64,000 nucleotides of DNA from Brachypterus glaber. Taxonomy: Eukaryota > Arthropoda > Insecta > Coleoptera > Kateretidae. A model generated the notes under the pieces. It was not told where the DNA came from, ran no database searches, and saw nothing but the letters and a program-made list of their open reading frames with translations. The stretch lies in assembly GCA_958510825.1 (NCBI GenBank), contig OY294044.1:39295816-39359815 (forward strand), read 5' to 3'. Below, in pieces: positions 10,093 to 61,600 of the stretch (the stretch's first letter is position 1; every line of letters starts with the position of its first letter). A program made the position numbers and the translations under genes.

Positions 10093-10203
10093 GATTTTTT
10101 CATTATTTTATATAAAAAAGAACAAGAAATATTATAATTAATATAAAGATAATGTTATAGAATATATTTAACTATACTTTTGATACAGTCTTTACTTTTT
10201 TTA

Positions 10204-30298: not shown

Positions 30299-30470
30299 GA
30301 GATACTTCAAATTTGGAACACTTAAGACAACTAAAACCATCATTTAACATATCGTCATCTAAAGGCTCTAACGGTCTAACTCCAAAACGTCATATTTTTC
30401 AGGAGACGTAAATAACGATTTAAAATTTAATTATAGCAATTTAGAACTTTAAAACTAGCTTGTTCACAGG
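30299..30470. other. Noncoding stretch before the gap
   Basis: Continues the dispersed repeat seen at 29470 ('acttcaaatttggaac'). No match to the expected end of the Gypsy LTR. Confidence 0.4.
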
Positions 30471-30670
30471 NNNNNNNNNNNNNNNNNNNNNNNNNNNNNN
30501 NNNNNNNNNNNNNNNNNNNNNNNNNNNNNNNNNNNNNNNNNNNNNNNNNNNNNNNNNNNNNNNNNNNNNNNNNNNNNNNNNNNNNNNNNNNNNNNNNNNN
30601 NNNNNNNNNNNNNNNNNNNNNNNNNNNNNNNNNNNNNNNNNNNNNNNNNNNNNNNNNNNNNNNNNNNNNN
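30471..30670. other. Assembly gap (200 N)
   Basis: Exactly 200 N, within the 3' LTR of the Gypsy element. By comparison with the other LTR, about 1.8 kb may be missing here. Confidence 0.99.
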
Positions 30671-32869
30671 ATTTGTTTAGTGGTGAACTATACAGTCATT
30701 ACTATTTTATTTGTTTAGTGGTGAACTATACAGTGTCCCTTGATGGTAAGGGTTTAATCACCAGTATGGCTACAGATTGTACGGCTTGCCCTGCGAACCG
30801 TAGCAGCTATTTGGGTACAACCACAAATATCTGATCTGACAGGAAAATAGAGAAAAAAAATATAATTATGTAAATATATATACTCATTAAATTAGCCTAA
30901 ACTTGCATAAATTAGAACTTAAACTCATGTAGTAATTTATAATAAAATATCAAAAATAGGAAATAGCATCAGAAATAGTTATAGTTAAATGATACACAAA
31001 TAACCATTTATTTGTTTATGCAGTGCTACTGTGAATTATGTTAAGTTTGGATATGATTAAATAGCCAATAAATTTATGTACCATGGATATAGAAATAAAA
31101 AGTTCCTGTAGGAACCCTGAAATTTTGCGTAACGTTAGGCAACCTTCCTTACACTGAATATTTTGTTTAAATAATGTTTAAACACCCAGATAAAAGTTAT
31201 AGTTTTAAAATAAAATTAAATAGCATAATTGTTATAGTTATTGTGAATATGTTATAGTTATTGTAAATAGAACCAGTCATGGTTCCACGAACAGCTAGTC
31301 TGGCTTATTGAACCTAACCAAACTACTCGTAGAACCCTGATAGGGTCCCATCGACAATCAGGATATATAACCATGTATTGTCAGGTGTCAAGGAGTTACC
31401 GAAGCAACTCAGTGGCCCCTGTACAACAAATAGTAGTCCCACACTATAAAAAAAATATTTATATGAAATTTTAGTATTATAAAAACCTGATAATTTCAGT
31501 ACTGGTATGCTGACATCTCAAAGAAGGCTCGAACAACGACAATAATGTTGGTTCCCCATGTGGAGGGTTTATATCTTCCATCGTAGTTAGATACACACTG
31601 TAGAAGTACAAAAAGTATAGCTCGTAGTTCATCCAGAAACAAAACTTAACAAAACTGAGTGGTTTTTAGGCAGGAACCAAACAACATTGGACACACAGTA
31701 GACATAGCGAGGCATAGCGTAGCAGACTAGCCAAGCGTAGTAGGCCCTAACTTCGTTCCCACACGTTGAGTTTGAGTTGCCCTCTAGCACTCCATCGAAG
31801 TCACTACAGGGGTAGAAAATATGGTATAAGCACCCAGCGATTTGATAAAATAAAGTGAATCTATATAGATTCAGATGAAAATTACCAATGATTTATTTAT
31901 TTATTCATAGTAGTACACAAAGTTATGGAGATAGGAATAAAATTAGAAAATTACCTGTAGTCCTCAGAAAGTCCAAAATGGCATCCATTTCTCCGGTATT
32001 AAACCGAGGTATATACATAAAATTAACTGTATAATAATTCACAAAATATACCCTTAAATCTTGCTAAAGGTTTACTCCGAAATAGCTTCGTGGCCCACAA
32101 AATTAAAAATATAAAACTGGCCGTTGCCTTTAGAAGAATAAACTTGACACTATTATGGCTGACTGCGAACTGCAACTCGATGAAAATAAAAAGAGGACTT
32201 CTTGAACCACGACTCAGAATTTATAGCTCTTTTTAACAAAAAAAATAATAATGTCAAAACAGCCGAAATTTTAAAATCCCTGTCACACATATGCTATGTC
32301 TAAGAGACCGCCTTACAACAAATTTACAAAATAGCCCCATCCCCAACAATCAGCGGACACTCCTAGACCATAGATGCATACAATGATGATGAATAGCAAA
32401 AAAAATAAACCTATACTAGCTAAATTAATTATTTTACCAAAATAACTACAACCGTCCGGTTGACTAAGCTGAAATCGGCGGTAATACCTTAGACACTGCT
32501 AATTATTAAAAACAACAACTAAAGTGAGGTTATGTATATGTTCAAATAGTATCTTAAAATATATTTAATTAATCAAGCATAAACTAATAATAATAATAAC
32601 GAATACACCAAGAATAAGTGTCTCAAAATGATAAGTTAAAGATATGTTTACAAATAGCTAAACAAAAGTACAATTTAACAAAATCCTAGGAGAAAATATG
32701 TCTCGTAGGAGATCCAAAATAATGTGTATCACTATCTAAGAAGCCAATATCTGGTATAATGAAGATAAGTCGAAGTAATAATGTTATAAATAAGAGTATA
32801 ACAAGTTTAAATAATACAAATGTACACGGTAAGAATATTTATGTTCTAAATTCAAATTTAGCGGTTACA
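30671..32869 (-). repeat. Gypsy element 3' LTR (partial, cut by gap)
   Basis: On the minus strand the LTR starts TGTAACCGC at 32869, immediately after a polypurine tract. 30671-31167 is nearly identical to 40430-40905 in the other LTR (a handful of differences by eye). Only this part overlaps, since the left end falls in the gap and the other LTR is truncated. Confidence 0.65.
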
Positions 32870-32946: not shown

Positions 32947-34036
32947 CTAGTCATCAGCGACGTTAATTACATCATTGTTGGGGTGTTTCTTAATATCTTT
33001 GGCGTGCCAAACGCCATCTAAATTACCGTGTTCATCCGATAGTTCATATGTCATATGTTCATATAAGTACTTAATTTTTTTGAGACCTTAAAGGGTCCAA
33101 CAAAATTGGAAGCTCTTAGCTGAAAAATATTTAGAGGCGTCCGATAAAACATAATTTCTTCGCCAAACTTTATCACCTATTTCAAAAGTTTCTGCACGAT
33201 GTCTAAGATCATAATAACGTTTATTTTTAATTGCACTCTTTTCGATATTTTTAGCAACAAAATTATATATTTCCTTAAGATTTCTTGAAGTTACTAACGG
33301 ATCATTTTCTTTTTCATCCTCTGTCAAGCCATCTTTTTCCGCAAAAGTTTTTCCCGACAAAACAATTTCTCTAGCAAAGTTCAAAAAATAAGGAGTATAA
33401 TTAGTAACTTCGTGAGTTGAAGTTCTTATCGCGCAAGTTATAGATTGGAGATTTTTGTCCCAATGGCGGTGATTTTCACCAACATACGAAGCTAACATAT
33501 TTTTGATAGTTTTATTTGCACGCTCTGTAGGATTGGCTTGAGGATGATTATTTTGCATTATACGTAATTTTAATGTCATATTTATTAGCTAAATTCTTAA
33601 ATTCCTTACATATAAATTTTTTTCCATTATCGCAATAAATAGTTTCTGGGGCTCCAAATAATAATATAACATGATCTTCGATATTTTTAACTACTTGAGC
33701 ACCTGTAGCTTGTCTCATAGGAAAAGTTAATACAAATTTAGTAAATGTATCGATAACAACTAATATATAACAATATCCCTGAGATGATCGTGGCAGAGGC
33801 CCGATAATATCTGTGGATATACTACGCCATGACTTCTTGACTTTAGGATGAGTTAACATAAGTCCTGCAGTCTTCTTCTGGACAGGTTTATGAGATATAC
33901 AAATTTTACACTGTGAAACAAGATTAGAAACGTCTTTTCGCATTTTTGGCCAAAAGTATGAAAAAGCTAATCTCATATAAGTTTTAAATATTCCTGTATG
34001 TCCGGAAGTTGGATCGTCATGATATTTTTCTAACAA
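32947..34036 (-). pseudogene. Gypsy integrase and pol C-terminus
   Basis: Encodes the Ty3/Gypsy integrase. The N-terminal zinc-binding part shows HTGIFKTY and CKICISHK (HHCC type). The core has SISTDIIGPLPRS (first Asp) and IYCDNGKKFICKEF (second Asp); after a frameshift near 33560-33579, NPTERANKTIKNML supplies the Glu. A C-terminal part ends VINVADD-stop at 32947 after another frame change near 33090. The frameshifts inactivate it. It follows the RT-RNase H on the minus strand as usual for Gypsy pol. Confidence 0.85.
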
Positions 34037-34044
34037 TTTTAATC

Positions 34045-36005
34045 TTAATCTTCTTTAGGTACCACTTCTTTCCAATTTTCAGCAGAAGGTGGTAGTTTAT
34101 GATATTTTGGTTTTACATATTTAAACATTTTACCTTTGGAAAGGCGAAAGTTTGAGTATCTTAGCGGATTTCTCTCGATTCTAACCAACAGGGAATTATA
34201 CCATCTATCTGCTGTTTTGACTTCAGAAGATTTCATCTAAAATTGGGACAGATCGAGATAACATATCAGGTACTACGTGTTCTTTGCCTTTACGATGTAT
34301 GATGTTAAAATTATATTGTTGTAATCTTACACCCCATCTTGCCAATCTACCACTTGGATTTTTGAGGTTGTTTAACCAAATTAACGAGTGCTGGTCCGTT
34401 ATTACAGTGAAGGGCACTCCTTCCAAATATGACCTTAATTTTTCAATAGCATATAATACTGCTAGGCACTCTTTTTCTGTGGTGCTATATTTTCTTTCTT
34501 GACTTGAAAGTGAACGACTAATGTAACATATTACTTTTTCTCCATTTTCGTAGGGTTGAGTAAGTACAGCACCTATTCCAAAATCTGACGCATCGCTTTG
34601 TACGCTGAAAGGTAAGCTATAGTCTGGGCAAGTAAGAATCGGTGATGAAATAAGAAGTTCTTTAAGTTTTTCACATGCTTCTGCACAAGACTGAGTCCAT
34701 TCAAATTTCTTGTGTTTCCTTAATAATTCATTTAGTGGTGCAATTAAAGTTGAGTAATTAGGAATAAATCTTTTATACCATTGTGCGGTTCCTAAAAAAC
34801 GTCTAATATCTTTTACGTTTTTTGGTTGTGGGATATTAAGTATTGCTTCTACTTTCTTGGGGTCTACGTGAAGTCCTAATTCATCAACAACATATCCTAA
34901 ATATTTAAGCTCGGGTTTACAAAATTCGCACTTTTCTTTACTTAATGTTAGTCCGGCTTTAAGTATCCTTCTAAATACTTCTTCTAAAATTTCCATATGT
35001 TTTTCAAATGTTTCTGTAACTATCACAATATCGTCTAAATATACAAAGACGAAGGGTTCAAGGTCGGCTCCTATTACACGATCTATTAAGCGTTGCCAAG
35101 TTGCAGGTGAGTTATGAAGTCCAAAAGGAAGGCGCTTGAACTGGAAGAGTCCTCTATTAGGTACTGTGAAAGCTGTAAATGGTCTTGAGTCTTCGGCTAC
35201 TGGAATTTGCCAGAAAGCACTTTTTACATCCAGAGATGATAAATATTTTGCTTTTCTTAGTTTTTCTAAAGTATGGGTGACGTATGGAAGTGGGTAACTA
35301 TCTCTCACTGTTACGGCGTTTAATTTTCTGTAATCAACGCAAAATCTGTAAGAACCATTTTTCTTTTTAATTAAAACAATAGGTGATGCCCAAGGTGAAT
35401 CTGATTTTTCGATGATATCGTTATCTAACATTTCTTGAAGTTCTTTATCGACATGTTCTTGTATGACTGGAGATATTGGATAATAACGTTGTTTAATTGG
35501 TGGAGAGTCTGTTTTTATTACGTGTTCTGTTAAGTTAGTGCAACCAATTTTATCCCCCATTTGGTTGAAGTATTTCTGAAGAAGTTTGTCCAATATTATC
35601 TGTTGGTGTTCTAATAGTTTTGATGTTGTTTCGGTAGCGTCCAGATAAGAGTCTGCATTCTTTGAAAAGGTCCAACTATCAGAGCGTAAGTCTGGTACTA
35701 TGCCCATTTTCTTCCAGAAATCCCATCCTAGTATTATTTTATAAGGGGTTTCTTCTAAAATTCGTACTTTCATAAGTATAACTTTGTTGTTGACATTTAT
35801 TGGCAAGTTAGCATATCCGCGACTTGTACAATATTGATTGTTTGCTACACGACATTGTATTGGTTCTTCGACAAGTTTTGCTCCTAATGGTTCTAATATT
35901 TTCCAACCTTCTTTTCCAATATAAGTTAGTGGCTCCAGAATCTAATAATCCAAGCATATTAATACCATAAATGTTGACTTTGAGATAAGGTCTTTCGTTT
36001 TGCAC
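34045..36005 (-). pseudogene. Gypsy protease, reverse transcriptase and RNase H
   Basis: Starts with NERPYLKVNIYG and a retroviral-type protease motif LLDSGAT. A frameshift right after it (near 35935) leads into the frame open from 35806 to 34223. That frame holds SPIVLIKKKNGSYRFCVDYR, SLDVKSAFWQIP (motif A), LPFGLHNSPATWQRLID (motif B), VFVYLDDIVIVT (motif C, YLDD intact), KYLGYVV, then RNase H with QSDASDFGIGAVLT, STTEKECLAVLYAI and ITDQHSLIWL. The segment 34045-34236 is the linker to integrase, reached by a frameshift near 34230, with another near 34040. RT and RNase H look intact as domains; the polyprotein is broken. Confidence 0.9.
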
Positions 36006-36122
36006 ACTCAGTTATAAAATCCAAGATGTGAGTGTTGTTTTTAAAGTTAATAGTCCGTTCCTGTTCTAAATTTTTAAAATACTTGGTCGAATTCTTATAA
36101 ATGGCACTCCTTATACGACCTT

Positions 36123-37807
36123 TTAAGAAGTCCTTTTGGAGTTTTCCGAATTCTGATTCGGGTTACAATTTGGACAGTTTCTTTTTGTAAAGCCGGGATT
36201 TTCACAACGATAGTATCTAAGTATAATTGGTTTTCTGCATTCTGTATAATAATGTCCTAAGTAGTTACAGTTAAAACATTTTATAGGTCTTCGATAATTA
36301 TTATTTGAAGTGTTGTTAGGTTGCTGATCGGTTACGTTATTTGGAGAAAAGTTTCTATTATTTGATAAAAAATTGTTATTAGGTTGTTGATTCCTTGGAT
36401 AAAAATTAGAACTGCGAGTAAAGTTGAAATTTTGAGGTCTAGAATTTTGATTTGAAAAATTGTTGTTATATGTTCTTTGATTTGAAGAAAAGTTTTCCTG
36501 CTGAGGATTGGTAGTTGAAAATTTATTTGGACTTGTTTCTTGTGATGTGATAGCGTCTATGTTGTCGGTTCCTTCTGGATTCCCAATATAAGCAAGATCT
36601 TGTTCCAAAACTTTATTTTTCCTTGAAGGTGGTTTAAATTCTTCTACGTTCTTACGTGTTCCTTCTATTAATCTTCCTAATTCCAAGAGATGTTCCACTG
36701 AGTTTACTTTTGTTAGTCCTAATTGTGTTTGATAAAATGGTAAAATATTCCGAGTAAGAATTTTAAGTTGTGCTTGTTCGCTGATAGGGCAGGTTAATCT
36801 CTTAAATAAAGATGCCATAACTGCTAAATAAATTCCTATAGTTTCGTCCTGTCCTTGTGTTCTTTCTAAAATTTCATGTAAAAGTTTGTCATTATAATCT
36901 GTTGCTTGAAATTCTTCTCTTAATTTAAGTGTCAATTCATCCCATGTAGACATCTGGTTCTTGAAAGCTCTGAAAAATATTAACGCTTTCCCAGTGAATA
37001 AATCACATGCTGAATGAAATAATTCTTCTTTGGAAACATTTCTTGCTTCCCGAAGTTCATCAACTCTTTCTAAAAATGCATTTAATGATAAGCTGTCCTT
37101 TTCCCCACTAAAAGATAAATTCCACTTAGAAACTGGCACTGACTTTATATAACTAAGTGTCTTATTGTAATGTGTATTAGCATTGGTAGGTTGATGTGTA
37201 GGTAGATTAGGTGGTGTGTTCTGAACCTCTGGTACATTATGTCTAAGTGGTGTGGAAGTATGTGACCGTACTGGTTGATTATTACTTGATTCATCTGAAG
37301 ATGAGTCTTCACTTTCATTGTTCAAGTTTGATTCTAACAAGGTAAGTTCAACTGGAGTAACAGAATTTTTGTTTAATTTCTGTTTGTTTTGAATTTCCTG
37401 ACGCATTATATCTTGATATTTGTTGATAGTTCCTAATACTGAAGTTAAAAGTCTTGAGGATTCTTCGTTTTCTTGTGGATTATTTGGTTGCATACGTTTA
37501 ACTCTTCCTAATAAATGATGTAGTTTATATTCTATTTTCCCTTTCTTCTTTTTCTTGTTATTTGGAGTTAACTCATCTATCAGTTGTTTGATTTCTGCTA
37601 ATTTCGTAGCACAAGCAAAAGTATCCTCTTCAAAAGTAAATGGGTGTTGTGGTGGAGTAAAAGATCCTGATTTGATGTCTCCAATGATATAGCTGCATTA
37701 AGAGATGTCCGCATTTCTTCTACTGTCGCTTGTTGAATGTTACGAATCTTGCATTCATATGCCAGTTCGTCTTGTACTAGATGATAAAGTTTAAATCTAA
37801 GAGCCAT
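36123..37807 (-). pseudogene. Gypsy gag
   Basis: Starts MALRFKLYHLVQDELAYECK at 37807 and carries a single frameshift near 37690, then runs openly through the 456-codon frame 37493-36123. It has an acidic Ser/Asn-rich region, a capsid-like retrotransposon gag domain (VSKWNLSFSGEKDSLSLNAF, LFTGKALIFFRAF, TWDELTLKLREEF), and an Asn-rich basic tail. One clear zinc knuckle, CFNCNYLGHYYTEC (CX2CX4HX4C), is followed by a second knuckle-like block, GFTKRNCPNC, whose first Cys appears to be Tyr. Gag coats the element RNA and forms particles. It lies 5' of the protease on the minus strand. Confidence 0.85.
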
Positions 37808-41383: not shown

Positions 41384-41842
41384 TCAGTTAGTAACACCAA
41401 TCTTCTGTCTTAAATATTCAAATTGAAGTTTGGACAGTGGTTTTGTAAATATATCAGCTAACTGCTCCTTTGACTCAATATATTTTAGTTCTATTTCACC
41501 ACGTTCATATACATCTCGTACAAAATGAAATCGAACATCGATATGTTTTGTTTTTCTATGATACTCTGGATTACTTGATAATTTTAAACCTAGCTCATTA
41601 ATAATCCGACGAAGCCATATTGCATCTTTTGTTCCATTGGACAAGGAAATGTACTCAGCTTCAGTTGTAGAAAGTGATACTACACGTTGCCGTTCTGAAG
41701 ACCAAGAGACTGCTCCTCCATTAAACAAAAAAACACTCCCGCTTGTAGATTTACGTGTGTCTATGTCACCCGCGTAATCTGCATCCGTGAACCCGCACAA
41801 GGTATTTTTGCTCCCACTGTCTGTAAATAATCCCGTAATCAA
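41384..41842 (-). pseudogene. Copia RNase H domain
   Basis: Minus frame with LCGFTDADYAGDIDTRKSTS (catalytic Asp region), GGAVSWSSERQRVVSLSTTE, AEYISLSNGTKDAIWLRRI and HIDVRFHFVRDVYERGEIEL, ending in QKIGVTN-stop. These are hallmark Copia RNase H motifs. The segment usually containing the DNQSAI motif, between LGLKLS and NPEYH, is absent, so an internal deletion removed part of the fold. It is joined by a frame change to the RT frame at about 41800. Confidence 0.85.
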
Positions 41843-42921
41843 TTGTTCCTTTCAAATACCGCATTATTTTCTTAACTGCTTGCCAATGCTCCTGTCCGTA
41901 ACATGTTAAAAATTGACTGGCTTGATTAACGGCGTATTCGATATCTGGACGACTCACTTTGGCTGCGAAAAGAAGAGATCCAATAGCTTCGCCATATGGC
42001 ACATTTTTTATTTCATTTTTTTCTTGTAGACTCTGCATTTTACTCAGACGTAGGCCAGGCTCAGCAGGAACAGTTGATGTTTTAGCTTCTTCCATGTAAA
42101 ACCGATTCAGTATCTTCTGAATATATGCACTCTGACTTATTTTAATCGTGCCCTCTCGATTTCGCTCAATTTCAAGACCAATGAACCGTTTCGCAATGTC
42201 AATAGTAATTTGAAAATTCTGCTTCAAATTTTGCAGAACTTCATTAATTGCATCTTGAGAGATTGAGATCAGGCCATCATTAAAGTCCTAAATATACAAC
42301 TTCTCCATTTACATTACCAGAAAATATACATTTATCTGACTCTGTTTGTTTAAAATTAAATAACTGTAAAAATTTAACTAACTTCGTATTCCAACATCGT
42401 GGAGATTGCTTTAATCCATATAAACTTCTTTGAAGCTTACAAACTGCTTCAGGGCGGTCCTTCTCTTCAAATCCAGGAGGTAGCTGCATGTAAATTTCTT
42501 CCTTTAAATCGCCATGTAGCTGCATGTAAATTTCTTCCTTTAAATCGCCATTGAGAAATGCCGTTTTGACATCAAATTGAGATATTTCTAAGTTATTTCT
42601 TGCAGCTAAGGATAGAAGTATTCGAACCGATTCATAACGAACTACTGGAGCAAACGTTTCAAAATAATCTATGCCTTCACGCTGTGAGAAGCCTTTCGCC
42701 ACTAGCCTGGCTTTGTATCGAATAGTTCCAATAGAAGTGACCTTTTCATTAAATATCCATCTACAGCCAATCACATGCTTACCTTCTGGAAGTTCAGAAA
42801 GCTCCCACGTTTCATTTTGATACAGTGAGTTCATTTCATCATTCATTGCATTTAACCATTTTTGAGATTTAGCCGAGGCCATAGCACCTTCAAAACTGGT
42901 TGGTACTGCATCAACTATCAA
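41766..42921 (-). pseudogene. Copia reverse transcriptase
   Basis: The minus strand reads KWLNAMNDEMNSLYQNETWE, GCRWIFNEKV, YKARLVAKGFSQREGIDYFE, TFAPVVRYESVRILLSLAAR, ISQFDVKTAFLNGDLKEEIY (motif A), CKLQRSLYGLKQSPRCW (motif B). The catalytic YVDD block near 42270-42285 is lost: the frame ends YLGL-stop, and in the next frame FNDGLIS resumes, which implies a few deleted bases. Downstream KRFIGLEIER, YIQKILNRF, VPYGEAIGSLLFAAKVSRPD and AVKKIMRYLKGT are conserved. A 36-bp in-frame tandem duplication (42481-42552) repeats GDLKEEIYMQLH. Inactive. Confidence 0.9.
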
Positions 42922-43480
42922 GGCATCTTCGTATCGCTGAGGTCTGCGCCATATTCTTCCTGAACCTCTGGTGGCATTTCATTATCAGGCTCTAGTTGAT
43001 CTTCATAACCAAAACCAAGTACTACATTTTCTTCCTCCGGTTTATTCTGAATTATTTCAACTTGCGCTAACATTTCATTAAAAATAACATCGCAGCTTAC
43101 ATGTATTTTTCGATTATTAGGGTCCCAAAGACGATAGTTCTTTGATTCGCCTTCATAGCCAACTAAAATCATTTTAGTGCTTTTTGAATCAAGTTTTGTT
43201 CTAGATTCTTTAGGTACATGTAGATACGCATCACAACCAAATATACGCATGTGCTTGATTTCTGGTTTTTCACTAAACCATCTCTCATATGAAGTCTTTT
43301 CTTCAGATTGCTTTGATATCGTTCTATTTAAAACATATGCAGCTGTCGCAATTGCTTCTGCCCATAACTCTTTAGAAAGGTACATTTTTTTCAAAAAAAT
43401 CCCATTCTGAAACTGCTGCACATATTTTTTTAATTTTCACGGAAAATGTTAGTTATACCATGAGCTATTCGTGTATTTTT
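42918..43480 (-). pseudogene. Copia integrase C-terminal part, truncated
   Basis: The minus frame encodes ELWAEAIATAAYVLNRTISK, KTSYERWFSEKPEIKHMRIF, GCDAYLHVPKESRTKLDSKS and MILVGYEGESKNYRLWDPNN, the standard region C-terminal to the Copia integrase core. The catalytic D-D-E core and the whole of gag and protease are missing. The coding sequence is cut at about 43480, where the foldback-type terminus 'tatttcaaatacacggtgta' begins. Confidence 0.85.
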
Positions 43481-47169: not shown

Positions 47170-50100
47170 GGTCTGTTGTCTACGATAACACTTTAAGCTA
47201 AAGACTTGAAACTTAGCATACAGGTATGTTACCAAAAGTTCTCTCTCGGGATTGTTTTTAGTGAAAATAGAGGTGCAGCAAGGCGGAAAAATTTGCAGAT
47301 GGTGAAACTTAAAAAAAAAAACACAAAAATCTGAAAATTACCCTATGGGAGTTTTTGAAATTCAATCTGATCTGAGGGGGCAATTATTTATAAATGTTTA
47401 CAATATTTTCGTGAAAATCGGTAAGGCTTTTGGGGTAGATAAAATTGAATCTGATAACAAAAAAAAAATAAGGGGGTAATTATTTTTAAATTTTTACAAT
47501 ATTTTCGTGAAAGTTGGTAGCTAAGGGTTTTTGGGGTAGCTAAAACTAAATCTGATAACGAAAAAAAAATTTACTCCACTCTCGCAGGGGTAATGGGGTA
47601 ATTATTTTTAAATGTTTAAAAATTTTTCGTGAAAATTTGTTTATAGGGGTTTTTGAGGTAGCTAAAACTAAATGTGATAACAAAAAAAATTTAAATCCAC
47701 CCCGCGGGGGTAAGGGGGTAATTATTTTTAAATGTTTGCAATATTTTCGTGAAAATTTGTATATGGGGGCTTTTGGGTATCTAAAACTGAATTTGATAAC
47801 GAAAAAATTTTAACTCCACCCCCGCGGGGGTAAGGGGTAATTATTTTTAAATGTTTACAATATTTTCGTGAAAATTGGTATATAGGGGTTTTTTGGGTAG
47901 CTAAAACTGAATCTGATAACGAAAAAAAATAACTCGACCCCCGCTGGGTTAAGGGGGTAATTATATTTAAATGTTTACAATATTTTCGTGAAATTTTGTA
48001 TATAGGGGTTTTTGGGGTATCTAAAACTGAATCTGATAACGAAAAAATTTTAACTCCACCCCCGCGAGGGTAAGGGGGTAATTATATTTAAATTTTTACA
48101 ATATTTTCGTGAAAATTTGTATATAGGAGTTTTTGGTGTAGCTAAAACTTAATCTGATAACGAAAAAAAATTAACTTCACCCCCGATGGGGTAAGGGGGT
48201 AATTATTTTTAAATGTTTACAATATTTTAGTGAAAATTTGTATATGGGGTTTTTTGGGGTATCTAAAACTGAATCTGACAACGAAAAAAATTTAACTCCA
48301 CCCCCGCGGGGGTTAGGGGTAATTATATTTAAATGTTTACAATATTTTCGTTAAAATTGGTATATAGGGCTTTTTGGTGTAGCTAAAACTTAATCTGATA
48401 ACGAAAAAAATTTAACTCGACCCCCGCGGGGGTAAGGGGGTAATTATATTTCAATGTTTACAATATTTTCCTGAAAATTTGTATATAGGGGTTTTTGGTG
48501 TAGCTAAAACTTAATCTTATAACGAAAAAAATTAACTCCACCCCCGCTGGGGTAAGGGGGTAATTACTTTTAAATGTTTACAATATTTTAGTGAAAATTT
48601 GTATATGGGGGTTTTTGGGGTATCTAAAACTGAATCTGACAACGAAAAAAATTTAACTCCACCCCCGCGGGGGTAAGGGGGTAATTATATTTAAATTTTT
48701 ACAATATTTTCGTGAAAATTTGTATATAGGAGTTTTTGGTGTAGCTAAAACTTAATCTGATAACGAAAAAAAATTAACTTCACCCCCGCTGGGGTAAGGG
48801 GGTAATTATTTTTAAATGTTTACAATATTTTAGTGAAAATTTGTATATGGGGGTTTTTGGGGTATCTAAAACTGAATCTGACAACGAAAAAATTTTAACT
48901 CCACCCCCGCGGGGGTAAGGGGGTAATTATATTTAAATGTTTACAATATTTTCGTTAAAATTGGTATATAGGGGTTTTTTTGGGTAGCTAAAACTGAATC
49001 TGATAACGAAAAAAAAATAAATATTATTAACTCGACCCCCGCTGGGGTAAGGGGGTAATTATATTTAAATGTTTACAATATTTTCGTGAAAATTTGTATA
49101 TAGGGGTTTTTGGGGTATCTAAAACTGAATCTGGTAACGAAAAAAATTTAACTACACCCCCGCGAGGGTAAGGGGGTAATTATTTTTAAATGTTTACAAT
49201 ATTTTTGTGAAAATTTGTATATAGGGGTTTTTGGTGTAGCTAAATTTTAATCTGATAGCGGAAAAAATTTAACTCGACCCCCGCGGGGGTAAGGGGGTAA
49301 TTATATTTAAATGTTTACAATATTTTCGTGAAAATTTGTATATAGGGGTTTTTGGTGTAGCTAAAACTTAATCTGATAACGAAAAAAATTTAACTCCACC
49401 CTCGCTGGGGTAAGGGGGTAATTATTTTTAAATGTTTACAATATTTTCGTGAAAATTTGTATATGGGGGTTTTTGGGGTATCTAAAACTGAATCTGACAA
49501 CGAAAAAATTTTAACTCCACCCCCGCGGGGGTAAGGGGGTAATTATATTTAAATGTTTACAATATTTTCGTTAAAATTGGTATATAGGGGTTTTTGGGGT
49601 AGCTATAACTGAATCTGGTAACGAAAAAAATTTAACTCCACCCCCGCTGGGGTAAGGGGGTAATTATATTTAAATGTTCACAATATTTTCGTGAAAATTG
49701 GTATATAGGGGTTTTTGGCGTAGCTAAAAGTGAATCTGTTGACAAAAAAAAATTAACTCCACCCCCGTGGGGGTATGGGGGTAAATATTTTTAAATGTTT
49801 ACAACATTTTCGTGAAAATTGGTATATAGGGGTTATTTGGGTAGCTAAAACTAAATCTGATAACGAAAAAAAATTAACTCGACCCCCTGCTGGGGTAAGG
49901 GGGTAATTATATTTAAATGTTTACAATATTTTCGTGAAAATTTGTATATAGGGATTTTTGGGGTATCTAAAACTGAATCTGATAACGAAAAAAATTTAAC
50001 TACACCCCCGCGAGGGTAAGGGGGTAATTATATTTAAATGTTTACAATATTTTCGTGAAAATTGGTATATAGGGGTTTTTGGCCTAGCTAAAAGTGAATC

Positions 50101-53100
50101 TGTTGACAAAAAATTTTTAACTCCACCCCCGCGGGGTAAGGGGGTAATTATTTTTAAATGTTTACATTATTTTTGTGAAAATTTGTATATAGGGGTTTTT
50201 GGTGTAGCTAAATTTTAATCTGATAATGGAAAAACTTTAACTCGACCCCCGCGGGGGTAAGGGGGTAATTATATTTAAATGTTTACAATATTTTCGTGAA
50301 AATTTGTATATAGGGGTTTTTGGTGTAGCTAAAACTTAATCTGATAACGAAAAAAATTTAACTCCACCCTCGCTGGGGTAAGGGGGTAATTATTTTTAAA
50401 TGTTTACAATATTTTCGTGAAAATTTGTATATGGGGGTTTTTGGGGTATCTAAAACTGAATCTGACAACGAAAAAATTTTAACTCCACCCCCGCGGGGGT
50501 AAGGGGGTAATTATATTTAAATGTTTACAATATTTTCGTTAAAATTGGTATATAGGGGTTTTTGGGGTAGCTATAACTGAATCTGGTAACGAAAAAAATT
50601 TAACTCCACCCCCGCTGGGGTAAGGGGGTAATTATATTTAAATGTTCACAATATTTTCGTGAAAATTGGTATATAGGGGTTTTTGGCGTAGCTAAAAGTG
50701 AATCTGTTGACAAAAAAAAATTAACTCCACCCCCGTGGGGGTATGGGGGTAATTATTTTTAAATGTTTACAACATTTTCGTGAAAATTGGTATATAGGGG
50801 TTATTTGGGTAGCTAAAACTGAATCTGATAACGAAAAAAAATTAACTCGACCCCCTGCTGGGGTAAGGGGGTAATTATATTTAAATGTTTACAATATTTT
50901 CGTGAAAATTTGTATATAGGGATTTTTGGGGTATCTAAAACTGAATCTGATAACGAAAAAAATTTAACTACACCCCCGCGAGGGTAAGGGGGTAATTATA
51001 TTTAAATGTTTACAATATTTTCGTGAAAATTGGTATATAGGGGTTTTTGGCCTAGCTAAAAGTGAATCTGTTGACAAAAAATTTTTAACTCCACCCCCGC
51101 GGGGTAAGGGGGTAATTATTTTTAAATGTTTACAATATTTTTGTGAAAATTTGTATATAGGGGTTTTTTAATCTGATAATGGAAAAACTTTAACTCGACC
51201 CCCGCGGGGGTAAGGGGGTAATTATATTTAAATGTTTACAATATTTTCGTGAAAATTTGTATATAGGGGTTTTTGGTGTAGCTAAAACTTAATCTGATAA
51301 CGAAAAAAATTTAACTCCACCCTCGCTGGGGTAAGGGGGTAATTATTTTTAAATGTTTACAATATTTTCGTGAAAATTTGTATATGGGGGTTTTTGGGGT
51401 AGTTAAAACTTAATCTGAAAACGAAAAAATTTTAACTCCACCCCCGCTGGGGTAAGGGGGTAATTATATTTAAATGTTTACAATATTTTCGTGAAAATTT
51501 GTATATAGGGGTTTTTGGGGTATCTTAAACTGAATCTGAAACGAAAAAAAATTAACTCAACCCCCGCGAGGGTAAGGGGGTAATTATATTTAAATGTTTA
51601 CAATATTTTCGTGAAAATTGGTATATAGGGGTTTTTGGCGTAGCTAAAAGTGAATCTATTGACAAAAAAAATTTAACTTCACCCACGCGGGGGTAAGGGG
51701 GTAATTATTTTTAAATGTTTACAATATTTTTGTGAAAATTTGTATATAGGGGTTTTTGGTGTAGCTAAAACTTAATCTGATAACGGAAAAAATTTAACTC
51801 GACCCCCGCGGGGATAAGGGGATAATTATATTTAAATGTTTACAATATTTTCTTGAAAATTTGTATATAGGGGTTTTTGGTGTAGCTAAAACTTAATCTG
51901 ATAACGAAAAAAAATTAACTCCACCCCCGCTGGGGTAAGGGGGTAATTATTTTTAAATGTTTACAATATTTTCGTGAAAATTTGTATATGGGGGTTTTTG
52001 GGGTATCTAAAACTGAATCTGACAACGAATAAATTTTAACTCCACCCCCGCGGGGGTAAGGGGGTAATTATATTTTAATATTTACAATATTTTCGTTAAA
52101 ATTGGTGTATAGGGGTTTTTTGGGTAGCTAAAACTGAATCTGATAACGAAGAAAAAAATAACTCGACCCCCGCTGGGGTAAGGGGGTAATTATATTTAAA
52201 TGTTTACAATATTTTCGTGAAAATTTGTATATAGGGGTTTTTGGGGTATCTAAAACTGAATCTGAAAACGAAAAAATTTTAACTCCACCCCCGCGAGGGT
52301 AAGGTGGTAATTATATTTAAATGTTTACAATATTTTCGTGAAAATTTGTATGTAGGGGTTTTTGGCGTAGCTAAAAGTGAATCTGTTGACAAAAAAAATT
52401 TAACTCCACCCCCGCGGGGGTAAAGGGGTAATTATTTTTAAATGTTTACAATATTTTTGTGAAAATTTGTATATGGGGGTTTTTGGGGTATCTAAAACTG
52501 AATCTGACAACGAAAAAATTTTAACTCCACCCCCGCGGGGGTAAGGGGGTAATTATATTTAAATTTTTACAATATTTTCGTTAAAATTGGTATATAGGGG
52601 TTTTTTGGGTAGCTAAAACTGAATCGGATAACGAAAAAAAAAAAATCGACCCCCGCTGGGGTAAGGGGGTAATTATATTTAAATGTTTACAATATTTTCG
52701 TGAAAATTGGTATATAAGGGTTATTTGGGTAGCTAAAACTGAATCTGATAACGAAAAAAAAATTAACTTGACCCCCGCTGGGATAAGGGGGTAATTATAT
52801 TTAAATGTTTACAATATTTTCGTTAAAATTGGTATATAGGGTTTTTTTGGGTAGCTAACACTGAATCTGATAACGAAAAAATTTTAACTCCACCCCCGCG
52901 GGGGTAATTATATTTAAATGTTTACAATATTTTCGTGAAAATTGGTATATAGGGGTTTTTGAGGTCGCTAAAACTGAAACTCAGAATAACTTTTATTCTA
53001 AATATACCCCTCAGGGATGTGGAGGGGGTGGGTTTGTAAAAATTGGTATAATGGGGTTTTTGAGGTTGCTGAAAGTAAATAAAATAATAAAAAATCCATT

Positions 53101-55359: not shown

Positions 55360-55364
55360 ACTGG
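55360..55364. repeat. BEL target-site duplication, left (ACTGG)
   Basis: ACTGG here and at 61596-61600, directly outside both LTRs. Confidence 0.85.
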
Positions 55365-55807
55365 TGTGCGGGGTTGAAAGTTGAAAATCAGAGGACTTAC
55401 CAATATTCAGCTTTCTGAGTTGACTGTATCATCTAAGCCGCGTTAACTTAGATACCATAGGCTTTTGATTGTGAACTGGTAGGATCCAAAATAGTGACTT
55501 GTTTTCTTGTATTAAACGAATACGCATGAAACGGAGCACTGAACATATAATTAAGTTTAATAACATTACGAAACGACACTGCACATTTATTTGTTAAAAT
55601 TTCAATTATGAATTAGCTAAATTCATTACCGGTTTTAAAAATGTATTTAAAAATCATGCGTGCATGTTTGTTTACCGCGTGGGTTGATTCTCTGAACTCG
55701 AATCCCATTTGCCCTCTCTCTCTGGTGGCTATCATGTGATCACAGGGTTGCTAGTTGTTTATATAGCGACGTTGCCAGATTTATATTTTCTAAGATACGT
55801 CGCGACA
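55365..55807 (-). repeat. BEL/Pao 3' LTR, 443 bp
   Basis: Begins TGTGCGGGG and ends GTCGCGACA on the plus strand (TG...CA type on either strand). It matches 61153-61595 with five differences seen by eye, all transitions. On the minus strand this is the downstream LTR. Confidence 0.9.
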
Positions 55808-55825
55808 TACCGCCGCCCTTGAAAG
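55808..55825 (-). other. BEL polypurine tract region
   Basis: Minus strand reads CTTTCAAGGGCGGCGGTA immediately before the LTR start TGTCGCGAC. Purine-rich core AAGGGCGGCGG. Confidence 0.55.
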
Positions 55826-55904
55826 TATGTACTTTCAAAACAAAAGAAACCATAGACCAGCTTAGAAGGTAGTATATAATTTAATTAATTAATTTAATAA
55901 TATA

Positions 55905-58844
55905 TTACTCCTGGTCAATTGGTAATACGGCCACCTTGGAACAAGCTCTTTTGAGTACTCCATTTTTAGTTTTCACGGAGACCACTCTATTTATGTTGTC
56001 AGCTCCGGGAAATAGCTGAATGATTCTGCCTAGACTCCATTCCATTGGACCAGCGTTTTCTTCTTGAATCAAAACCATATCGCCTATCTTGATAGGATTG
56101 TCCTTTGACACTCTCCATTTGCTTTTTTGTTGTAGATCAGCTAAATATTCTAAATTCCATCTCTTCCAAAAATGTTGTACATATTGTTGTAGTAATTTAT
56201 ACTTGGTAAGTCTATTTGTTGGGACGTTTTCAACGTTTTCCTCAGGAAGACCAACCATTTCAGCTCCAATAAGAAAATGTGAGGGTGTTAAAGGATTAAG
56301 ATCATTTGGATCAGGAGACAAAGGACTCAAGGGTCTGGAGTTCAAAATTGCTTCGACCTGATTCAATATAGTAAGAAATGATTCATAATGTAGGTTTTTA
56401 TCCGCAATTATTCGAACTAAGTGATATTTACATGAGCCAATAGCTCTTTCGTGAAGACCACCAAAGTTTGGAGCGTGAGGAGGTATGAAGTGCCAAGTCA
56501 CCTGATTTTGTAATAAATAATCTTTTATAGTAGCGTCAGAAAGACTTTCATACACTTTAATTAATTCATTGTTGGCTCCAACCAGGTTTGTCCCATTGTC
56601 AGAATAAATGTGTTTTGAAAAACCTCGCCTTGACATAAAGCGCCTTAAGCAATTTAATAGACATTCCTTACTTAAGTTACCGGCAAGCTCAATGTGAACT
56701 GCTTTAGTGCTAAAGCACACAAACATGCAAATATAGGTTTTGACAATTTTGCGTGATGGTGTTATACCATCTTTAATGTTGTATGGACCCGCAAAATCAA
56801 GACCGCATGTAAAAAATGGGCGTGAGGGACTAATGCGCCTTTGTGCCAAGTTACCCATTATAGGTTGAGTTAATATGGGCTTAGCCCGAAAACAGGTTAC
56901 ACATTTTCGGATTATTCCACGAACTACCTCTCTACCATTAATAATCCAGTACCTAAGCCTGAGAGAAGCAAGTACCGATAATGGGCCAGCATGTGCCAAA
57001 CGGATATGTTCTGATCGAATCAACATTTTAGTAAGAGTATGTGACTTTGGAAGCAAAATCGGGTGCTTCTGTGTATACGGAATTTTAGCGTGCTTTAATC
57101 TTCCGCCCACTAAAAGTAAATCGTTGGTTCGATCAAGAAAGGGACTTAACGAAAGCAAATAACTAGTTTTATTTAATGGTTTGTTGCCTACTAAAAATGA
57201 AATTTCATTGTGAAAAGCTTCCTTTTGAGCCAAACGAAGTAAAACTAAAAGAGATTTGTTTGTTTCAGTGACAGACAATCTACCGTGTAGTTTATTTTCA
57301 CTTCTGGGATTTGCGTTGTACGAAAAACGCAAACAATACGCAACAACGCATTGTAATTTAAATAAATCTGAAAACCTTTCAAAAATATCAAAGTTATTTG
57401 CTTTTGTAGCAGTCAAGACTGTGCTTTTTCGAAATTGTTCATTGCTTGTATTAAATTTTTTATTACTAAGTTCTTTGACTTTCCAGAAATTTTCTATTTG
57501 ATGAGAAATCTTTTCCTCTACGGAAAGACCACAGAAATTACTATTTTTATTTGAATTATTAATTTGCATTTGACCGCCCAAAATATATCCAAAAACAGTA
57601 TTTTGCAAAAAAGGTTGATTTGGCCCCAGTGAGATTAAACCCTCCCGTAAAAGGTTCCAATAGACACCAACTCCCAATAAAATATCTACAGGCTCTGACC
57701 TATAAAACTCAGGGTCAGCTAGTTTTAACCCACTTGGAAGCTCAAAATTAATACTGGATATAGTTTGGGTAGTTATTGGACCTGTAATTTTATCCAATAC
57801 CAAAAACTCAATACTTTTAGTAAAATTATTTTTAAAAGACTCAATACAAGCAAATGTTTTTATTAGCGTGTTTGTTTCATTTCCACTAATACCAACTATA
57901 GGTGTGTTATTTTTAAACGAATGAAGCTTTAATTTTGAAAATAAATCAAATGTCATAAAATTACTTTGACTACCTGTGTCAAGTAGGCATCTGCACTTGA
58001 CAGGGTTATTATGAATATCATAAATAAAACAAACAGCTGTAGAAAGTAAAGAAATATTTTTAGTTTTAACAAAATTGTTATGATTTTCAAATGAGTGCGC
58101 TGAAGTGCTAGGCTGCTGCGCGGTAAAGGGGTTATTATTTTCAGAACTATTTAAATTTTCTGAATTATTGTTTCTATTTTCACTTGCAGATAAAGAATTT
58201 AAATTTGAATTATAACTAGCCATATTTGCATGACTAACCATATTGGAATCTTGAAAATCTCTGAAATTATTTTTATTTTGAGAAAAACTATATTTATTTT
58301 GATTAAAATTATCTTTATTTTGAGTAAAACTATTATGATCTTTTTTACTTTCATTATTATTATTATTCGAAAAACAAAGCATAGTTGAATGCGGTTTTTT
58401 ACAAACGATACAGCAAGTATTAGCCCTGCAATCCTTAAAACTATGATTATCTCTTAAACATAAAACACAAAGATTTAATCTTTTAGCTTCATTATACCTA
58501 TCTTTAGGACTCATACTAAGAAATCGTTTACAATTAGTTATAGCATGATTAAAAGTACAAATTGGACAAGTACGTTGTCTAGAAAAATTCGAAAAATTAG
58601 CTAAATACTTATCATTACTTCTAGTTGAAGTTTGATTAGAAGATAAGGTTTCTAAGACTTGACAACGTTGATTTAAAAAAGTTTTAAATTGATCAAAAGT
58701 AGGTAGCTCGCTTCCTTTTACGGAAGTCTCCCACTCTCGTTTTGTATGAGTATCTAGTTTGGAAGAAATTATATATACCAGAATACTATCCCAACTATTA
58801 ACCGATTGCCCAAGATTTTCCAAACATATCTTTTTGAACACCAT
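55905..58844 (-). CDS. BEL/Pao pol lacking reverse transcriptase and RNase H
   Basis: An uninterrupted 979-codon frame. In order: the end of gag with three Cys/His knuckles (CPICTFNHAITNC, CVLCLRDNHSFKDC, CCIVCKKPHSTMLC), an Asn-rich linker, and an aspartic protease with CRCLLDTGSQSNFMTF. The segment VDILLGVGVYWNLLREGLIS follows, which normally precedes RT. At about residue 470 (near 57430) HQIENFWKVKELSNKKFNTS passes directly into FDIFERFSDLFKLQCVVAYC, which in BEL elements stands after RNase H. Then comes integrase: HxxxH region IRLAHAGPLS, CVTCFRAKP, GLDFAGPYNIK (Asp), IYSDNGTNLVGANNE (Asp), NFGGLHERAIGSCK (Glu), and a C-terminal DUF5641-like block (IGDMVLIQEENAGP, WSLGRIIQLFPG). So some 600 residues of RT and RNase H are missing without breaking the frame. 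Such an element could move only with enzymes supplied in trans. Confidence 0.9.
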   Translation of the reverse strand: MVFKKICLENLGQSVNSWDSILVYIISSKLDTHTKREWETSVKGSELPTFDQFKTFLNQRCQVLETLSSNQTSTRSNDKYLANFSNFSRQRTCPICTFNHAITNCKRFLSMSPKDRYNEAKRLNLCVLCLRDNHSFKDCRANTCCIVCKKPHSTMLCFSNNNNNESKKDHNSFTQNKDNFNQNKYSFSQNKNNFRDFQDSNMVSHANMASYNSNLNSLSASENRNNNSENLNSSENNNPFTAQQPSTSAHSFENHNNFVKTKNISLLSTAVCFIYDIHNNPVKCRCLLDTGSQSNFMTFDLFSKLKLHSFKNNTPIVGISGNETNTLIKTFACIESFKNNFTKSIEFLVLDKITGPITTQTISSINFELPSGLKLADPEFYRSEPVDILLGVGVYWNLLREGLISLGPNQPFLQNTVFGYILGGQMQINNSNKNSNFCGLSVEEKISHQIENFWKVKELSNKKFNTSNEQFRKSTVLTATKANNFDIFERFSDLFKLQCVVAYCLRFSYNANPRSENKLHGRLSVTETNKSLLVLLRLAQKEAFHNEISFLVGNKPLNKTSYLLSLSPFLDRTNDLLLVGGRLKHAKIPYTQKHPILLPKSHTLTKMLIRSEHIRLAHAGPLSVLASLRLRYWIINGREVVRGIIRKCVTCFRAKPILTQPIMGNLAQRRISPSRPFFTCGLDFAGPYNIKDGITPSRKIVKTYICMFVCFSTKAVHIELAGNLSKECLLNCLRRFMSRRGFSKHIYSDNGTNLVGANNELIKVYESLSDATIKDYLLQNQVTWHFIPPHAPNFGGLHERAIGSCKYHLVRIIADKNLHYESFLTILNQVEAILNSRPLSPLSPDPNDLNPLTPSHFLIGAEMVGLPEENVENVPTNRLTKYKLLQQYVQHFWKRWNLEYLADLQQKSKWRVSKDNPIKIGDMVLIQEENAGPMEWSLGRIIQLFPGADNINRVVSVKTKNGVLKRACSKVAVLPIDQE

Positions 58845-59511
58845 CCACTAAGCTTCGAAGAGCTGTAGCTGATTCCCGATTAATAACTGGTAAATCAAAA
58901 ATAGATTTTAAATGAGAATTTACTATAACCCTTTTATTATCAAACCTTTCTTTTAATAAATCGATGGCTAACTTATAATTATCCGAAAAAACGCTTAAAT
59001 TTTGAATAAGCTTCGCAGCTTCACTACGAAGGCATGACTTTAAATAATAAAAACGCTGTATATCAGACAATGTCGGGTTAGAGCCTACAATGGTATTAAA
59101 AATATCAATAAATTCGGTATACTTACTATATTCACCATAAAATTCTAAAAGCTGCAAAGAAGGCAGCTTCAAGCTACTCTGAACTGAGTTGACCTGAGCT
59201 GCGATAACAGAGACGTTGTTTGAGCCATTGGACGCATTAGCACTTTCCAAATCATGTAAAATTTGCTTAGCTTCAGCTACATAATCAAAAAAAATATCCT
59301 CAAAGGTTTTACGCTCATTTACTTCAGTAGCGTCCAATGCTTCGATTTCATCTTGTACTAGAATAAATTCAGGCCAAATCAACTCAATTTTTTCCAGACG
59401 TGAAGCTAACTGAAAGCTTACTCCAGACTGTATATCAAAAGTATCGAGAAAACCTCTAAACCTTGTGAGTTGGCCCTTCAAGTTACCTCTTTTTCTTTTA
59501 TAACCTTCCAT
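58798..59511 (-). CDS. BEL/Pao gag N-terminal part
   Basis: A 237-codon frame starting MEGYKRKRGNLKGQLTRFRG. It contains LPSLQLLEFYGEYSKYTEFI and RFYYLKSCLRSEAAKLIQNL, typical of the BEL gag domain (DUF1759-like). In BEL elements gag continues into pol in one frame; here the frame ends KDMFGKSWAIG and the pol frame, offset +1 and overlapping by 47 nt, carries on with ENLGQSVNSWDSILVYI. A one-base indel near 58830 explains it most simply. The Met at 59511 is the first in the frame and follows the long leader, so it is a plausible real start. Confidence 0.85.
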   Translation of the reverse strand: MEGYKRKRGNLKGQLTRFRGFLDTFDIQSGVSFQLASRLEKIELIWPEFILVQDEIEALDATEVNERKTFEDIFFDYVAEAKQILHDLESANASNGSNNVSVIAAQVNSVQSSLKLPSLQLLEFYGEYSKYTEFIDIFNTIVGSNPTLSDIQRFYYLKSCLRSEAAKLIQNLSVFSDNYKLAIDLLKERFDNKRVIVNSHLKSIFDLPVINRESATALRSLVDGVQKDMFGKSWAIG

Positions 59512-61133
59512 TATTTGTCTATTAGTAATGTAAAATTGAAAAATTTTGGATTATGTTTAAGTATTTATAAAACACTTAGTATATACTATCCAAAACAAAA
59601 TAAAAAAATTGTAGAAAAAGTATAAAGTATTTTTTCTTAAACAGAATTTTCTAAGGCCCTGTATAAAAGTTTAAACAACTAAGTATTATTATTAATAAAA
59701 TCTTCAGAAGTCTTACTAATGTTTATTAAAAGAATATAAAAAATGCTCAAAAAGCATAAAAATGCTTAAAAAATATTAAAAACTAAAGCAATTTTAGCTA
59801 TATGTATTTTAAACCAAATATTTTGTTTATTATTATTATTATTTAAACTAAATTCTAAATCTAAACTTAATTTATTTATTTTTGTAATTTTTTATTTTGT
59901 ATGTATTTTTATTTTATTTGGTTAATATTTTTTATTTTATTTTGTTAATATTTTTTAATCCTATTTTATGTTAGTTCTGTAAATTTATTATTATTTTATT
60001 AGTAAAAAATTAATTTAATTTGATAAATAATGGATCAAATAAAAAAATTAAGGCTATATTAGTTAAAAAATAGGCCTAAAACAAGCCTTTTCTGCATCTA
60101 CAAGAGCTTATACAAAATGCCTGTTAAATAATCAAAGAGTTTATTGTTTTATTCTGTTTTTAATTAAAGGGGAAAACCTTGCTAAGATGCCTCCAGAATA
60201 AAGCATATTTCCACTAAAAAACTACTGTTTTTGCTTCAACAAGTATAAACAAAGATTTCATGAAAACTAACTATACCTATATTAGTTTTATTTATAACAA
60301 AATTATTTTTATTTTAAACGACAAACGTTAGTATTTTATAACAATTAAAGTTCTTTTCGCCTGAAATATCGTAACGGCTAGTATTTTCTTAATATGAAAT
60401 ATTTTATACTAATACCAAACAAAATGTTTATTTACTCAGTTTATTATTATCAAGGGGCATTGAAACGCCAAAAAAGTATTAAACGGGCAATTAAGATCCC
60501 AAAGTATATTATTATTAATTTATTTTTATAAAAGGCATTGAATCGCCGAAAAAGTTATTACACGGGCAATTAAGATCCCAACAATCAAAAAATATATTAT
60601 TAAAATTTTATGGCCATTAAAAAACCACAAACTGGCTTAAAAAAAAAACCAAAAAAACACTGAAAAACAATGAAAACTTATTATTATATATAATACAAAA
60701 TCCAAACCTCCGTATTTTCACGAAATAGCTATTATTAATAATTAATTTAATTATATGGTGACTTTTTTCCGAATAAAATCAGAAAAATCGTTTTGTTTAA
60801 ACAAAAGCTAAATGGTTTTCACAAAAGACAACAAATACGAGTTTTTTCTTTTAAAAACATACAAACATAAAAAGTAGAAATATGAAACAAAGATATCCTC
60901 CGTCTCTTTCTAACACAAAACAAGCTATTTTTTACTTGAAAGTGTTACAATTTTTTATGCATAAGTCACAGCAAATTTTATTAATTTAGAAAGGTATTTT
61001 AAGGAAGAAAAAATTAAGGAAAACAGGATTTCTTATTTATTACTTCTGCTTTTCTCTATGCAAATATATTTAACGACGAAATCCAGGGACAATTCCCAAT
61101 CAAAATTTTGGTTCTCTGGTACCAATTCAAAAA
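59512..61133 (-). other. BEL 5' leader, long and noncoding
   Basis: About 1.6 kb of AT-rich DNA between the primer binding site and gag. It holds a ~78-bp direct repeat (60452-60525 and 60530-60605) sharing 'cgggcaattaagatccca' and a small 'ggcattgaa-cgcc' hairpin. The length is unusual for a leader and may carry RNA-packaging signals; that is inference. Confidence 0.6.
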
Positions 61134-61151
61134 TCCGTCTCGTTAGGACCA
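61134..61151 (-). other. BEL primer binding site
   Basis: Minus strand TGGTCCTAACGAGACGGA, one base after the 5' LTR end. Complementary tRNA not identified. Confidence 0.7.
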
Positions 61152-61152
61152 A

Positions 61153-61595
61153 TGTGCGGGGTTGAAAGTTGAAAATCAGAGGACTTACCAATATTCAGCT
61201 TTCTGGGTTGACTGTATCATCTAAGCCGCGTTAACTTAGATACCATAGGCTTTTGATTGTGAACTGGTAGGATCCAAAATAGTGACTTGTTTTCTTGTAT
61301 TAAACGAATACGCATGAAACGGAGCACTGAACATATAATTAAGTTTAATAACGTTACGAAACGACACTGCACATTTATTTGTTAAAATTTCAATTATGAA
61401 TTAGCTAAATTCATTACCGGTTTTAAAAATGTATTTAAAAATCACGCGTGCATGTTTGTTTACCGCGTGGGTTGATTCTCTGAACTCGAATCCCATTCGC
61501 CCTCTCTCTCTGGTGGCTATCATGTGATCACAGGGTTGCTAGTTGCTTATATAGCGACGTTGCCAGATTTATATTTTCTAAGATACGTCGCGACA
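61153..61595 (-). repeat. BEL/Pao 5' LTR, 443 bp
   Basis: Near-identical to 55365-55807 (five transitions). Contains a 'tatata' block (61549-61556 region) and a 'ctctctctctgg' run. On the minus strand this LTR would hold the promoter. Confidence 0.9.
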
Positions 61596-61600
61596 ACTGG
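61596..61600. repeat. BEL target-site duplication, right (ACTGG)
   Basis: Matches 55360-55364. Confidence 0.85.

What the first reader, a model, noticed from the sequence alone, without database searches (positions are those of the whole stretch)
55360..61600. Recent, structurally complete BEL/Pao element with reverse transcriptase and RNase H cleanly removed
Seen: perfect 5-bp TSD, 443-bp LTRs with about five transitions between them, PBS, PPT, and a 979-codon frame with protease and integrase motifs. Known: BEL pol normally places RT and RNase H between protease and integrase. Inference: the deletion is in frame and the insertion recent, so an RT-less copy may have been mobilised in trans by a full-length relative, a non-autonomous class that keeps gag, protease and integrase. 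If many genomic copies share the same junction near 57430, this is a proliferating defective family, not a single accident.
Basis: partly seen in the sequence, partly recalled or inferred. Interest (0 to 1): 0.75.

Follow-up and report, generated by a model that had tools for sequence, protein, structure and literature searches.

The report
Single defective copy of insect-type retrotransposon
A jumping element that lost its copying-enzyme genes was found, but in this genome that loss occurs in one copy only, so it looks like an ordinary broken copy and not a spreading family.

Summary
The element is real and lies exactly where reported (55360-61600, minus strand): 443-bp LTRs with five transitions, TSD CCAGT, and an open 979-codon frame with the end of gag, protease and integrase; reverse transcriptase (RT) and RNase H are missing. 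Gag is also broken, by a short frame-shifting gap inside DUF1759 that the two other long copies lack. In the window's own 648-Mb assembly the junction was found once. Five other same-family places keep RT sequence; one, on C19, shares the LTR (97-99%), has its own TSD, and holds 1,688 bp where the window has the junction. The break lies in a 5-bp repeat and has no splice-like ends. Best reading: one microhomology deletion, made during reverse transcription of this copy or after insertion; not a proliferating class. Protein databases hold RT-less BEL/Pao groups with shared junctions in other insects, one close to a full-length mealworm-type protein: a lead for the imagined class, not evidence about this copy. 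LTR copy number was not obtained.

The parts
55360..55364 (.). target site duplication CCAGT, 3' side of the element
55365..55807 (-). 3' LTR, 443 bp, TG...CA; carries the derived state at the five differing sites
55808..55820 (-). purine-rich tract before the 3' LTR (PPT position)
   Evidence: sequence; function inferred
55905..58844 (-). 979-codon open frame: C-terminal gag, protease, integrase, DUF5641
57432..57436 (-). deletion junction in a 5-bp direct repeat (AATTT); RT and RNase H missing here (1,688 bp against the C19 copy, 565-576 residues against eight protein relatives)
58798..59511 (-). N-terminal gag frame, 237 codons, ending early inside DUF1759 at a short frame-shifting gap
59512..61152 (-). 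long AT-rich leader without a listed ORF of 80 codons or more; TGG of the PBS position near its start
   Evidence: parts of it match the C19 and C12 copies
61153..61595 (-). 5' LTR, 443 bp
61596..61600 (.). target site duplication CCAGT, 5' side of the element

Best explanation
A single defective copy of a low-copy BEL/Pao LTR retrotransposon family. Shown: an insertion with a 5-bp TSD, RT and RNase H missing at a 5-bp microhomology, a second lesion in gag, one place in the assembly with this junction, and RT-bearing same-family copies elsewhere. Inferred: the deletion was one microhomology event, most likely a template jump of reverse transcriptase at the AATTT repeats while a full-length RNA was copied (about 0.55), otherwise a genomic deletion after insertion (about 0.4). 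In the first case RT-bearing relatives supplied the enzymes of that one cycle, but no RT-less template had to be mobilised. The copy encodes neither intact Gag nor RT and should be inert on its own.
For: Junction found once in 648 Mb. Both sides of the junction are present but apart in the C19 copy and in three C1 copies; C12 keeps the PR side followed by RT. Same-family RT sequence at 5 places, 89-100% identical, next best 71%. 5-bp microhomology, no filler, no splice-like ends. The gag gap is not in C19 or C12. LTR pairs differ by 5/443 here, 2/443 at C19 and 4/419 at C12. C12 shows another, different internal loss, so such damage recurs in the family.
Against: One assembly only: further copies with this junction could segregate in the population or sit in withheld or unassembled stretches. 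RT-less BEL/Pao proteins sharing a junction do occur in other data sets, so the proliferating class is not absurd in general. The deletion cannot be dated relative to the insertion. Read support for the junction was not available.
Confidence: 0.87

Rival explanations
1. A founder or member of a trans-mobilised RT-less family that keeps gag, protease and integrase, comparable to mouse IAP 1-delta-1.
For: Clean LTRs and TSD, open PR-IN frame; RT-bearing relatives exist. Precedents: IAP 1-delta-1 (passage of PMC6466679 read) and RT-less BEL/Pao protein groups in databases.
Against: Junction in 1 place only; gag broken in this copy; the open frame is expected by chance 44-70% of the time.
Confidence: 0.06
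2. Genomic deletion after insertion (replication slippage or microhomology end joining), unrelated to reverse transcription. This overlaps with the best explanation: it is its second possible timing.
For: 5-bp direct repeat and single copy; the gap in gag, not in C19 or C12, could be of the same kind.
Against: A single event is explained equally well by a template jump of reverse transcriptase; nothing here separates the two.
Confidence: 0.4
3. Assembly artefact: RT collapsed out between two short repeats.
For: The window contains unknown bases elsewhere (within 30445-30834), and no reads were available.
Against: Only 5 bp are repeated at the break, the element holds no unknown bases, and the two sides differ slightly from every other copy found.
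Confidence: 0.04
4. Retrocopy of a spliced transcript.
For: In one of six alignments the lost stretch ends in AG.
Against: No alignment of the 5-bp overlap gives a GT start (0 of 6).
Confidence: 0.01

Closest known systems
BEL/Pao LTR retrotransposons (Belpaoviridae)
   Same: LTRs, TSD, DUF1759 gag, aspartic protease motif, H2C2 integrase and DUF5641; same-family copies keep RT
   Different: this copy lacks RT and RNase H and has a broken gag frame
Mouse IAP 1-delta-1 proviruses
   Same: large internal deletion (1.9 kb there, 1.69 kb here) leaving a fused open frame between LTRs
   Different: [quoted passage not shown] this junction was found once
RT-less BEL/Pao proteins P0030-P0034 (mealworm-type)
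   Same: gag, protease and integrase kept, RT and RNase H missing in frame
   Different: different junction (residue 685 joined to about 1302 of P0022), five sequences sharing it, unbroken gag; number of loci unknown
C12 copy of the same family
   Same: same family, TSD, internal loss
   Different: keeps RT, loses the end of RNase H, integrase and the PPT

Membership tests
BEL/Pao (Belpaoviridae) | paired LTRs of 0.2-1.2 kb, with a target site duplication | tested here: met
   443 bp, CCAGT; LTR size range from PMC8742986, whole text read
BEL/Pao (Belpaoviridae) | gag with DUF1759 | tested here: met
   95.6 bits for the N-terminal frame (cut-off 25.4); the remainder in the 979 frame scores 23.1, just under it; frame broken between. 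That DUF1759 marks BEL/Pao gag is recalled and agrees with the relatives
BEL/Pao (Belpaoviridae) | protease, then integrase with H2C2 and DUF5641 | tested here: met
   H2C2 and DUF5641 above cut-off, protease and integrase core below it; pieces of relatives match; motifs
BEL/Pao (Belpaoviridae) | reverse transcriptase and RNase H between protease and integrase | tested here: not met
   absent in this copy; present in same-family copies. So it is a deletion derivative of a BEL/Pao family, not a complete member
BEL/Pao (Belpaoviridae) | PBS complementary to tRNA-Arg or tRNA-Gly | tested here: inconclusive
   TGG at the right position; no tRNA in the window, host tRNAs not searched
proliferating non-autonomous class (IAP 1-delta-1-like) | same deletion junction at several loci | tested here: not met
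   1 place
proliferating non-autonomous class (IAP 1-delta-1-like) | autonomous partner sharing the LTR | tested here: inconclusive
   RT-bearing partner with the same LTR at C19, but its RT lies in two frames; no undamaged copy seen among the places examined

The most novel reading that the evidence does not exclude
RT-deleted BEL/Pao elements that keep gag, protease and integrase arise repeatedly in insects and multiply in trans: three database groups (P0030-34 with full-length P0022; P0317/P0327/P0328; P0007/P0008/P0010) each share an in-frame deletion of RT. The window copy would be a failed, single-copy instance of the same event.
Probability: 0.3. Interest if true: 0.5.

Novelty: new member of a known kind. 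Interest (0 to 1): 0.2.

Why it matters
It shows how a clean-looking, in-frame deletion in one window can be mistaken for a new element class, and that the copy number of the junction decides. The side result, BEL/Pao proteins without RT that share a junction in other data sets, gives a concrete place to look for an animal BEL/Pao counterpart of mouse IAP 1-delta-1.

Tried and rejected
Splicing as the origin of the deletion: rejected (0 of 6 alignments GT...AG). RT moved elsewhere in the window: no BEL/Pao RT or RNase H match at E<=0.01. Relatives in viral contigs: two scans, none (the tool notes that records of the own genome may be left out). Mosaic origin from C12 and C19: dropped, since the window copy is close to both in gag and PR (gag 4/667 against C12 and 7/622 plus 45 gap columns against C19; PR side 18 against C12 and 14 against C19). 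A same-species full-length protein in the protein database: none seen; best identity over at least 80% of a piece was 47% (gag), 45% (PR) and 53% (IN) among the 328 proteins held after three searches (searches list only the best 120 of 159 and of 359 hits). NCBI gene models (P0057, P0065, P0202, P0203) were not taken as RT-less elements because annotation may have spliced them. Papers: seven answered searches; among the titles and abstract beginnings listed I saw no RT-less BEL/Pao family, and the passages shown of PMC3118150 (one passage), PMC3442997 and PMC3286476 describe none; these papers were not read whole.

My motif patterns did not find an integrase E in P0317/P0327/P0328 or P0007/P0008/P0010, a protease motif in the latter three, any integrase motif in P0065, or a YxDD-like motif in full-length P0022, so those proteins are not claimed to be functional.

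Full report
What is there. On the minus strand of the window, 55360-61600 is an LTR retroelement with a perfect 5-bp TSD (CCAGT), two 443-bp LTRs that differ at five sites, all transitions, and an open 979-codon frame. Pfam finds integrase H2C2 and DUF5641 above its cut-offs in the frame, and the DUF1759 remainder, the integrase core and the aspartic protease below them; a protease motif and a D-D-E set are present. RT and RNase H are missing: pieces of RT and RNase H from three relatives found nothing in the window at E<=0.01 (0 of 6), while PR and IN pieces of the same proteins all matched (6 of 6). Homology on the PR side reaches residue 470 in 11 of 16 relatives compared, and on the IN side starts at residue 472 or 473 in 10 of 16. 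Against eight relatives that reach the junction closely on both sides 565-576 residues are missing; a ninth, P0028, was left out of that list and would give 574.

The gag frame starting at 59511 ends after 237 codons in the middle of DUF1759 (profile positions 1-105), and the 979 frame takes up the domain at position 109. 191 of 217 database proteins then held match both halves within one protein (some are gene models), and both other long copies in this genome have a few bases there that the window copy lacks. So this copy has two lesions and cannot make an intact Gag. The openness of the remaining frame is unremarkable: at the LTR divergence about 17 substitutions and 0.36-0.83 stops are expected in it, so it would stay open by chance 44-70% of the time.

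Copy number. The own genome (648 Mb, 842 contigs) was searched with 201 bases across the junction: 16 matches, 1 of which (the window) spans it. The 33-mer with up to three mismatches occurs once. An integrase query gave 35 matches, 6 of them at 93-100% and the rest at most 73%. An RT query taken from the C12 copy gave 35 matches, 5 of them at 89-100% and the rest at most 71%. The tool calls its counts lower bounds, although all first-look candidates were scored in these calls. Four sister copies at about 71-72% (two on C16, one each on C6 and C10) also match the RT query, and I calculate about 2.2 kb between their PR-side match and IN match, against 0.53 kb in the window. The LTR and gag queries did not complete, so solo LTRs were not counted.

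The other copies. C19:7792543-7803661 has two 443-bp LTRs (2 differences) and TSD CAAGG, an insert of about 3.5 kb in its leader, and RT-RNase H sequence split over two frames. C12:24545141-24550497 has 419-bp LTRs (4 differences), TSD GCTAG, and RT in one frame, but RNase H runs straight into the first base of the 3' LTR: integrase and PPT are gone. At C1:61.66-61.68 Mb three copies lie about 6.3 kb apart, matching only from mid-PR on and with RT in several frames. I saw no undamaged copy among these.

The break. In C19 the two edges of the missing stretch carry AATTT, 1,688 bp apart; the window keeps one AATTT (57432-57436). 1,688 is not a multiple of three, which fits the separate frame change in C19's RT. 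None of the six possible alignments gives GT...AG, though one ends in AG. This is the mark of a short-repeat deletion, as made by template jumps of reverse transcriptase or by slippage or end joining in DNA (general knowledge). In the first case the RNA template could have been full-length, so no RT-less RNA needs to have been mobilised.

Age. The five LTR differences are derived in the 3' LTR: the C19 LTRs hold the 5' LTR state at 5 of 5 sites, and the C12 LTRs at the 3 of 5 that could be read. Three of the five are CpG changes, so LTR divergence may overstate age. The LTR pair divergences (1.1%, 0.5%, 1.0%) resemble the differences between copies in the coding part (0.6-1.3% in gag, PR and IN, gaps aside); LTRs differ more between copies (6-12 of 443 against C19, and 8-15 plus a 24-base gap against C12).

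The wider question. Among 328 related proteins retrieved in three searches, 12 keep gag, PR and IN matches but have no RT match. Six of them also lack RNase H, like the window copy: P0030-34 and P0065 (an annotated gene model). Six keep RNase H sequence: P0007/P0008/P0010 and P0317/P0327/P0328. P0030-34 share one junction (5 of 5), fall into two groups 12-14 residues apart, and are 98.5-99.8% identical to full-length P0022 on both sides; a Tenebrio molitor model is 97-99% identical to P0022. P0317/P0327/P0328 share a junction and differ by 32-49 residues plus gaps. P0007/P0008/P0010 differ by 4 residues in each pair. These may be alleles, one locus in several assemblies, or families; flanks could not be read because no metagenome scan was allowed. 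The database favours long open frames, so intactness there is biased.

Comparison with the known. [quoted passage not shown] The window copy resembles it in anatomy only. The Culex survey PMC3286476 says that its truncated LTR elements generally belong to families with putatively active members (passage). Verdict: a real but ordinary defective copy.

Noticed in passing
L010:4141-9497 (G000 C12:24545141-24550497): Same-family copy with TSD GCTAG in which RNase H runs directly into the first base of the 3' LTR; integrase and PPT are missing. How an insertion with intact ends lost its PPT at exactly the LTR start is unexplained.
   Followed up: partly
L011-L013 (G000 C1:61.66-61.68 Mb): Three truncated copies of the family about 6.3 kb apart, plus further IN-LTR fragments: a tandem or segmental duplication.
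   Followed up: partly
proteins P0317, P0327, P0328; P0007, P0008, P0010; P0030-P0034: RT-deleted BEL/Pao proteins with shared junctions in JGI contigs (P0030-34 close to Tenebrio molitor), possibly independent non-autonomous families.
   Followed up: partly
L014:1126-4652 (G000 C19:7799126-7802652): About 3.5 kb inserted in the leader of the C19 copy; longest frame 144 codons, not identified.
   Followed up: no
55365-55807 vs 61153-61595: All five LTR differences are derived in the 3' LTR (C19 as reference) and three of five are CpG changes.
   Followed up: yes
47469-52978: Satellite array, 121-bp unit, about 46 copies.
   Followed up: no
30445-30834: Run of unknown bases (assembly gap) within this stretch of the window.
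   Followed up: no
8142-10107, 13969-16122, 33088-37697, 41384-43436: Other retroelement frames that look like Penelope-, non-LTR-, Ty3- and copia-type (labels recalled from the translations, no family search run).
   Followed up: no
60470-60502 and 60549-60581: 33-nt direct repeat (91% identical) in the leader of the element.
   Followed up: no
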